DNA from: Flavobacterium flavigenum
Lineage (GTDB): Bacteria > Bacteroidota > Bacteroidia > Flavobacteriales > Flavobacteriaceae
Direction of reading: 5' to 3'
Assembly (NCBI RefSeq): GCF_027111255.2
Contig: NZ_CP114285.2
Location: 5,208,001 to 5,272,000, forward strand
DNA length: 64,000 nt
Of the stretch, positions 56,234-57,357 are shown in pieces. The notes under the pieces were generated by a model. It was not told the origin of the DNA. It made no database searches and worked only from the letters and a program-made list of their open reading frames with translations. Numbering within the stretch: the first letter of the stretch is position 1; each line of letters starts with the position of its first letter. A program made the position numbers and the translations under genes.

Positions 56234-56741
56234 GTTTCAGATTTTGACCAAAGATAGTAAAGTAATGATATGAAACGCATTTAAATTGCAAGTGATGTGG
56301 AAGTTGAACTGGCTCGTTTACAACGAGTCCCTATTTACTTTTGAAAACCAAATAAAGCGTTTGCAACGCGGCTTTTTAGATAGATTACCTAAATATTAAA
56401 ATTTATATTGACCATTTATTTTAGTAGTTACAAACTCCCTGCGCCATTTTAAATTTTGTTATAAATGAAAACTCGTCAAAAGTCTCCGACTTTACAACTA
56501 AGTTCAATAAAGATTATATTTTGTAAATGATTTCAGGTTTAAAACATCTACAACAGGATTATCTGCTTTTTCAACAGTTAATAATCCCGAATTATCAACA
56601 TGATTACTTGCACTTGAATAAATATAATCTGATGGTTTTGCCACAAGACCAGACCACAAAAGGATTGAAATGTATATAATCTAATTTATACCACATAAAA
56701 TCATTTGAATAAATTTCTTCAGCATGATTTCCGTATTGCCA

Positions 56742-56771
56742 CCCGAGCCTGAAAGGCGAACTGACGAAGTA
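56742..56771 (-). repeat. 30-bp insertion inside RAYT gene, in frame
   Basis: TACTTCGTCAGTTCGCCTTT followed by CAGGCTCGGG sits between TTC (Phe) and TGG (Trp) of the conserved YQF-W motif, adding YFVSSPFRLG. It resembles short interspersed flavobacterial repeats. Relatives have YQFW without it. Confidence 0.55.
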
Positions 56772-56834
56772 GAATTGATAGTCTTTATTTCTGCTGTGGC
56801 TTTGTGTTGCTAATTTAAAACGTTCCAACATCCA

Positions 56835-56862
56835 TTGGCTTCGCCGAACCACTTCGTTAGGT
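56835..56862 (-). repeat. 28-bp insertion inside RAYT gene, frame-breaking
   Basis: ACCTAACGAAGTGGTTCGGC followed by GAAGCCAA lies between GAA (Glu) and TGG (Trp) of the conserved SRKE-WML motif. It brings a TAA and shifts the frame. Its inverse contains the mini-hairpin GGC-TTC-GCC. It shares an ACTTCGT-type core with the 30-bp insert. Confidence 0.55.
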
Positions 56863-57357
56863 TTCTTTTCTACTCTCGGGACTGTTTTGTATTTTTTCTA
56901 AAATTGATTTTGCGGTAAATTTTTTAAAATCCCGAATCAAATCAGATAGTTTTCCTTCTTCTGATTGTACAATTAAGTGAATATGATTACTCATAATTAC
57001 ATAACCATACAAAATCATGCCTTTGTTTTTAATGCAATAGTCTAAACTTTCTATGACTATGTCCCTATAAGTTTGCCTTGTAAAGATATCAATCCAGTCT
57101 ACGACTGTAGCAGTTATAAAATGTGGTAAGGTTTGGTCACGAATTACGTATCCTTCTTTCATTTTAAGTTTTTTTTATAAATATAATGTTTTTGTATTTA
57201 TAGCTGTTTAAAAAATATTTCGTAAAAAGTCGGAGACTTTTAAGAGGTTTAGAGTTTATAATTGTGTTAAAAAAATTGCGCAAAGTCAGAGACATTTGCC
57301 AGTTTTTTATAAGAACACTTCGGAGAGCGGGGGAGAACACTTCATAGAACAGGGAAC

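What the first reader, a model, noticed from the sequence alone, without database searches (positions are those of the whole stretch)
56504..57162. RAYT gene broken by two REP-sized insertions next to Trp codons
RAYT enzymes are thought to move REP hairpins. Here the gene itself carries a 28-bp and a 30-bp insertion, each directly before a TGG codon of a conserved motif (SRKE-WML, YQF-W). They share an ACTTCGT core. One breaks the frame; the other adds 10 residues in frame. The mobile unit of such a system may be inserting in its own gene, a form of self-limitation.
Basis: partly seen in the sequence, partly recalled or inferred. Interest (0 to 1): 0.7.

Follow-up and report, generated by a model that had tools for sequence, protein, structure and literature searches.

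The report
Hairpin mini-elements repeatedly invading RAYT genes
A dead transposase gene in a Flavobacterium carries two tiny hairpin DNA elements, and the same two kinds of element have landed, independently, at the same codons of related transposase genes in other species, so short hairpin DNA seems to target these genes repeatedly.

Summary
The window's RAYT gene (minus strand, 57162-56504) carries a 28-nt insert after SRKE and a 30-nt insert after YQF. Intact homologues (95% identical over the first 100 residues) lack both. A third lesion, a 1-nt frameshift after HFNP, shows that the gene is decayed.

The inserts are two different families of short hairpin elements. Each has a 3-4 bp stem supported by compensatory changes. 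Copies are dispersed in other Flavobacterium genomes.

The main finding is recurrence. Family 1 sits at the same E|W boundary in five RAYT genes (G000, G168, G185, G192, G212). In each of those genomes it is the only convincing copy. Family 2 sits at the same QF|W boundary in four RAYT genes (G000, G089 and two different RAYTs of G231). A survey of about 110 RAYT genes found no other kind of insert of 15 nt or more. A tree and the differing flanks indicate independent events.

"Its own mobile unit" is not supported. The gene is flanked by unrelated REPs, and RAYTs with different flanking REPs carry the same insert. REPs inside RAYT genes are known (subclass 2.4, in frame). Recurrent insertion of foreign hairpins at fixed codons appears undescribed. 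What moves the elements is unknown.

The parts
56504..57162 (-). RAYT (REP-associated tyrosine transposase, HUH/Y1) pseudogene remnant
   Evidence: NF047646 E=8.9e-16 on the N-terminal piece, PF01797 over its cut-off; homologous to intact 199-211 aa RAYTs
56857..57162 (-). open N-terminal part (101 aa, HUH motif SNHIHL), ending SRKET* because of insert 1
56837..56864 (-). insert 1: 28-nt hairpin element AAACCTAACGAAGTGGTTC-GGC-GAA-GCC at the E|W codon boundary (ends ambiguous by 1-2 nt)
   Evidence: absent from intact homologues; same site in G168, G185, G192, G212; stem covariation
56742..56771 (-). insert 2: 30-nt hairpin element TACTTCGTCAGTTC-GCC-TTTCA-GGC-TCGGG at the QF|W codon boundary, in frame
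   Evidence: absent from intact homologues; same site in G089 and in two RAYTs of G231; stem covariation
56654..56660 (-). third lesion: 1-nt net insertion (frameshift) just after HFNP
   Evidence: net +1 offset in the profile scan; comparison with L006
56479..56493 (.). flanking REP palindrome AAAGTCTCCGACTTT, 3' side of the RAYT
57226..57240 (.). flanking REP palindrome AAAGTCGGAGACTTT, 5' side of the RAYT
   Evidence: related 27-nt REP folds at -12.8 kcal/mol, z -6.8
57282..57296 (.). further degenerate copy of the same REP (AAAGTCAGAGACATT)

Best explanation
The gene is a RAYT inactivated by two non-autonomous, REP-like hairpin mini-elements of about 28 and 30 nt that belong to two different families and are not the REPs flanking this RAYT. 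Each family inserts at its own fixed spot in RAYT genes (family 1 at E|W, family 2 at QF|W), in the same orientation in nine of ten cases, and without a clear target-site duplication. Shown here: the inserts; their dispersed copies in other genomes; the covarying stem; repeated, phylogenetically independent insertion at the same codon; and the absence of other insert kinds. Inferred: the hairpins are joined into single-stranded DNA by an HUH/Y1 transposase (another RAYT or IS200-like enzyme acting in trans) that reads a short target (GAATGG or CAATTYTGGCAA). RAYT genes are hit preferentially because these codons keep the target sequence constant, because the sites may be exposed or bound by the transposase itself, and because losing a RAYT costs the cell little. 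The result is a dead RAYT that then decays.
For: Intact homologues without inserts. Family 1 at the identical site in G000, G168, G185, G192 and G212, whose N-terminal parts are 49-86% identical where comparable, with different flanking codons, so not copied as one tract. Family 2 at QF|W in G000, G089 and G231-C17, and in a different RAYT subfamily, G231-C62. In a search of 389 genus genomes for any 17-45 nt insert at the two sites, only these families turned up in RAYT genes. In the profile scan of about 110 RAYTs, the only net insertions of 15 nt or more belong to these families. The tree forces one change per insert-bearing row. In G000, G168, G185, G192 and G212 the RAYT copy is the only convincing family-1 copy; all three G231 copies of its family-2 variant are in RAYT genes. 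Finding 5 of 26 family-1 copies in RAYT genes has a probability of about 1e-11 even if only a tenth of the genome tolerated inserts. Covariation of the stems: 0 of 500 shuffles reach the observed score.
Against: No mobilising enzyme was identified, and no insertion was caught as a polymorphism. The short target strings are not rare enough to explain the RAYT preference alone: about 2,400 GAATGG and about 13 CAATTYTGGCAR per genome. The element folds are weak on their own (z -0.2 to -2.0). One family-2 copy in G231 sits at another place in the gene, inverted. In G168 and G212 the downstream half is otherwise intact, which also fits retained function.
Confidence: 0.62

Rival explanations
1. Self-limitation: the inserts are this RAYT's own cognate REPs, transposed by the RAYT into its own gene.
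For: RAYT genes are hit repeatedly; family 1 carries a nearly invariant GTGG like the GT[AG]G foot of REPs; REPs inside subclass 2.4 RAYT genes are published (PMC6006769).
Against: The flanking REPs of these genes are different (AAAGTC...GACTTT in G000 and G168; GCGTTTGCAACGC-type near G212), and none of the RAYT loci held is flanked by insert families 1 or 2. Two unrelated insert families lie in one gene.
Confidence: 0.12
2. Tolerance only: the elements insert anywhere, and RAYT hits survive because RAYTs are dispensable; shared sites are chance plus a weak target preference.
For: Several insert-bearing RAYTs are otherwise decayed (G000, G089, G192, G185, G231); most non-RAYT copies lie outside long ORFs.
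Against: Dispensable intergenic DNA is far larger, yet in five genomes the sole family-1 copy is in a RAYT at the same codon. Chance of three of three survey hits at one site is about 3e-6.
Confidence: 0.12
3. The inserts are kept because the gene still works: the ribosome bypasses or shifts frame over the 28-nt hairpin, and the 30-nt insert adds a tolerated 10-residue loop.
For: Insert 1 plus flank is open in the +1 frame in all five genes (KPNEVVRRSQ-W and variants). Downstream halves of G168 and G212 show dN/dS of about 0.03-0.06 against intact relatives. In-frame REP inserts are published for subclass 2.4 RAYTs.
Against: Insert 1 puts TAA two codons after the insertion point with no evident take-off or landing match. 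G000, G089, G192, G185 and G231 carry further disabling lesions. The low dN/dS values equally fit recent insertion.
Confidence: 0.08
4. One insertion event spread between RAYT genes by horizontal transfer and recombination.
For: Insert sequences in G000 and G192 (family 1) and in G000 and G089 (family 2) are identical.
Against: Codons immediately flanking the inserts differ between the genes; nearest relatives of each lack the insert; the tree requires separate gains.
Confidence: 0.06

Closest known systems
REP insertions inside tnpAREP genes of subclass 2.4 (RAYT group 4), Quentin et al. 2018, PMC6006769
   Different: There the inserts are the gene's own REP types (canonical long or double foot), keep the frame, and fall in a length-variable region. 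Here they are two families that do not flank the gene, at fixed codon boundaries, and one breaks the frame. The RAYT motifs here (NHIH, WQ, YIHLNP / YIHQNP) look like subclasses 2.1/2.6 rather than 2.4.
Intragenic REPs / CGTC- and GTAG-tagged palindromes, Di Nocera et al. 2013, PMC3733652 (including Rickettsia RPE)
   Same: 20-40 nt palindromes inserted in coding genes, sometimes several per gene; one case at about the same site in two species' recB genes.
   Different: Targets there are diverse genes and often stay in frame; no recurrent hits on transposase genes at one codon are described in the passages read.
REP/REPIN-RAYT systems (Nunvar 2010, PMC2817692; Bertels and Rainey 2011, PMC3116915)
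   Same: RAYT gene flanked by REP palindromes; REPs or REPINs are thought to be moved by the RAYT.
   Different: The inserts are not the flanking REPs and are single hairpins in one or a few copies in these genomes.

Membership tests
RAYT (REP-associated tyrosine transposase) | matches the RAYT family profile | tested here: met
   NF047646: window N-part 58.1 bits, E 8.9e-16 (fragment, below the whole-protein cut-off of 80); intact homologue L006 102 bits, over the cut-off
RAYT (REP-associated tyrosine transposase) | HUH motif and Y motif in an intact protein | tested here: not met
   HUH (SNHIHL) present, but the Y motif part is cut off by insert 1 and the following frameshift: a pseudogene of the family
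RAYT (REP-associated tyrosine transposase) | gene flanked by REP palindromes | tested here: met
   AAAGTCnnnGACTTT on both sides
REP element (inserts 1 and 2) | short (20-40 nt) dispersed hairpin | tested here: met
   28 and 30 nt; dispersed copies; compensatory changes in the stem
REP element (inserts 1 and 2) | GT[AG]G foot next to the hairpin | tested here: inconclusive
   Insert 1 has a nearly invariant GTGG three nt before its stem; insert 2 has none
REP element (inserts 1 and 2) | flanks its cognate RAYT gene | tested here: not met
   none of 137 RAYT-containing loci (some overlapping) has insert 1 or 2 as a flank; they occur only inside the genes
CGTC-tagged palindrome | invariant CGTC end, stem of 8-9 bp, CCA tail | tested here: not met
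   Insert 2 has CGTC in many copies but also CATC and CGCC; its stem is 3-4 bp
REP-in-RAYT inserts of subclass 2.4 | insert is the gene's own REP and keeps the frame | tested here: not met
   Insert 1 breaks the frame; neither insert matches the flanking REPs

The most novel reading that the evidence does not exclude
These are RAYT-homing mini-elements: non-autonomous hairpins of about 30 nt that specifically target conserved sites in RAYT genes (and, for family 1, in REP palindromes), that is, a parasite of the REP-RAYT system that destroys transposase genes, possibly by using the RAYT protein itself bound near its gene.
Probability: 0.35. Interest if true: 0.8.

Novelty: new variant of a known kind. 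Interest (0 to 1): 0.6.

Why it matters
How REP-like hairpins move is an open question, and direct insertion events with known empty sites are scarce. Here there are about ten insertions with intact homologues as empty sites, which gives element ends, orientation, lack of a clear target duplication, and a candidate target sequence. It also suggests a natural route by which RAYT genes are silenced: recurrent inactivation by hairpins from other repeat families rather than by the gene's own REPs.

Tried and rejected
Counting k-mers in 864 kb of the genome showed that neither insert is an abundant repeat of this genome. A shared ACTTCGT core as evidence of one family was rejected, because the two stems, loops and target sites differ and the core is inverted between them. 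Rfam gave no match. A first any-insert search at the E|W site was [12 protein letters not shown] (it demanded GAAAG and missed GAGAG) and was repeated in reverse orientation. In the tree the row labelled G185 is a neighbouring RAYT, not the insert-bearing fragment, so it is not counted as evidence; independence of G185 from G192 rests on 79% DNA identity of their downstream parts. Translational bypass was considered and kept only as a weak rival. CGTC-REP membership was tested and not met.

Full report
OBSERVATION. The minus strand from 57162 to 56504 encodes a RAYT remnant. NCBIfam's REP-associated tyrosine transposase model hits the N-terminal piece at E 8.9e-16 and the intact homologue L006 above the cut-off. 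Homologues 91-95% identical over the first 100 residues read ...SR[KR]EWMLERF...YQFWQYGNHAEEIY...YIHLNPV... without interruption. The window gene has 28 extra nt between E and W (stop TAA plus frameshift) and 30 extra nt between F and W (in frame, YFVSSPFRLG). A profile scan gives net offsets of +28, +30 and +1. The +1 is a third lesion after HFNP at about 56654-56660, so this is a decayed gene.

COPIES. In its own 5.43 Mb genome insert 1 has no other convincing copy (16-mer hits with 2 mismatches equal the reversed control). Insert 2 has one other copy with 1 mismatch, in an intergenic region upstream of an efflux-adaptor-like gene. Across 299 genomes of the genus, family 1 has 26 copies in 12 genomes and family 2 about 75 copies in 45 genomes, with zero hits for the reversed control patterns. 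Alignments show a short stem with compensatory changes in both families: family 1 GTTC-[GGC/GAC/AGC]-GNA-[GCC/GTC/GCT], family 2 GTTCG-[C/A/G]C-TTTCA-G[G/T/C]C-TCGGGT. No shuffle reached the observed covariation. These are dispersed hairpin elements, not random DNA.

RECURRENCE. Five of the 26 family-1 copies lie in RAYT genes, all between E and W of SR[KR]EW: G000 (window), G168, G185, G192 and G212. G185, G192 and G212 correspond to records named Flavobacterium salmonis CIP 111411, Flavobacterium sp. H122 and a Flavobacteriaceae MAG. In each of the five genomes the RAYT copy is the only convincing one. Family 2 lies between QF and W in G000 and G089 (identical 30-mers), in G231 contig 17, and in a different RAYT subfamily of G231 contig 62 (the latter's C-terminal piece hits NF047646). 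G231 contig 17 has a second, inverted family-2 copy about 100 nt upstream in the same gene. Searching 389 genomes for any 17-45 nt insert at the two sites found only these families in RAYT genes; the other matches listed did not look like RAYT genes. A profile scan of about 110 RAYT genes found no other net insertion of 15 nt or more.

INDEPENDENCE. Codons immediately next to the insert differ between the genes, for example AGTAGAAAAGAA, AGTCGAAGAGAA and AGCAGACGTGAA. Each insert-bearing gene has closer insert-free relatives, and a tree of the first 100 residues needs one change per insert-bearing row (the row labelled G185 must be ignored because it is a neighbouring RAYT). G185 and G192 are 79% identical in DNA downstream, so at least four and probably five family-1 events and four family-2 events at the shared sites are inferred.

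ENDS AND TARGETS. The family-1 ends that fit all sites are G^[AAACC...GYY]^A, with no clear duplication. RAYT sites read GAATGG; other copies sit inside other palindromes, including the loop of the REP that flanks this RAYT type (AAAGTCAGG^AGACTTTG in G090 and G226) and GTCG^AAATGAC REPs in G209, which has about 18 copies. Family-2 RAYT sites all read CAATTYTGGCAA. Such strings occur about 2,400 (GAATGG) and about 13 (CAATTYTGGCAR) times per genome, so sequence alone does not explain the preference for RAYT genes.

WHOSE ELEMENTS. The window gene is flanked by AAAGTCTCCGACTTT palindromes, and the G212 gene by GCGTTTGCAACGC-type repeats. Insert families 1 and 2 are not found as flanks of any RAYT locus held. 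So the inserts are foreign to these RAYTs' flanking REPs, which speaks against the strict self-insertion idea. No enzyme that moves them was identified.

FUNCTION. Insert 1 truncates the protein before its W and Y motifs. In G168 and G212 it is the only lesion and the downstream half looks constrained (dN/dS 0.03-0.06 against relatives). This fits recent insertion and does not exclude retained function. In G000, G089, G192, G185 and G231 the genes carry other lesions. The most economical reading is insertion, loss of function, then decay.

KNOWN OR NEW. [quoted passage not shown] REPs in other genes, once at about the same site in two species, are published (PMC3733652). I found no description of foreign hairpins recurring at one codon of RAYT genes in the papers searched; the library is incomplete. 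I rate it a new variant of a known kind.

Noticed in passing
L002:1500-1950 (own genome, G000:C1:4097206 onward): The paralogous RAYT is cut off exactly after NKDYQF, the insert-2 codon, by a different REP-like palindrome (CCCCTGCTGGCGTGAG... GGCTCGTGCCCACAAC). A direct repeat of part of it lies about 700 bp upstream, and a gene resembling a tyrosine recombinase follows.
   Followed up: partly
L105 (two copies) and L097 (two copies): Family-1 elements sit inside the tetraloop of the REP hairpin that flanks this RAYT type (AAAGTCAGG^AGACTTTG), so REP palindromes are targets too.
   Followed up: partly
L014 and L017 (G201, G215): Two RAYT homologues carry the same kind of stop codon, at the Q of the YQFWQ motif (YQFW*YGNH), right at the insert-2 site.
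   Followed up: no
window 56357-56369: A second REP type (GCGTTTGCAACGC), which flanks a different RAYT subfamily in other genomes, lies near this RAYT.
   Followed up: partly
G209 (loci L103, L108-L113): About 18 family-1 copies, most inside another REP/REPIN type (GTCGAAATGAC), possibly copied as composites.
   Followed up: partly
L147:470-520: Second, inverted family-2 insert after EP(E) in the same RAYT of G231 as the QF|W insert.
   Followed up: partly
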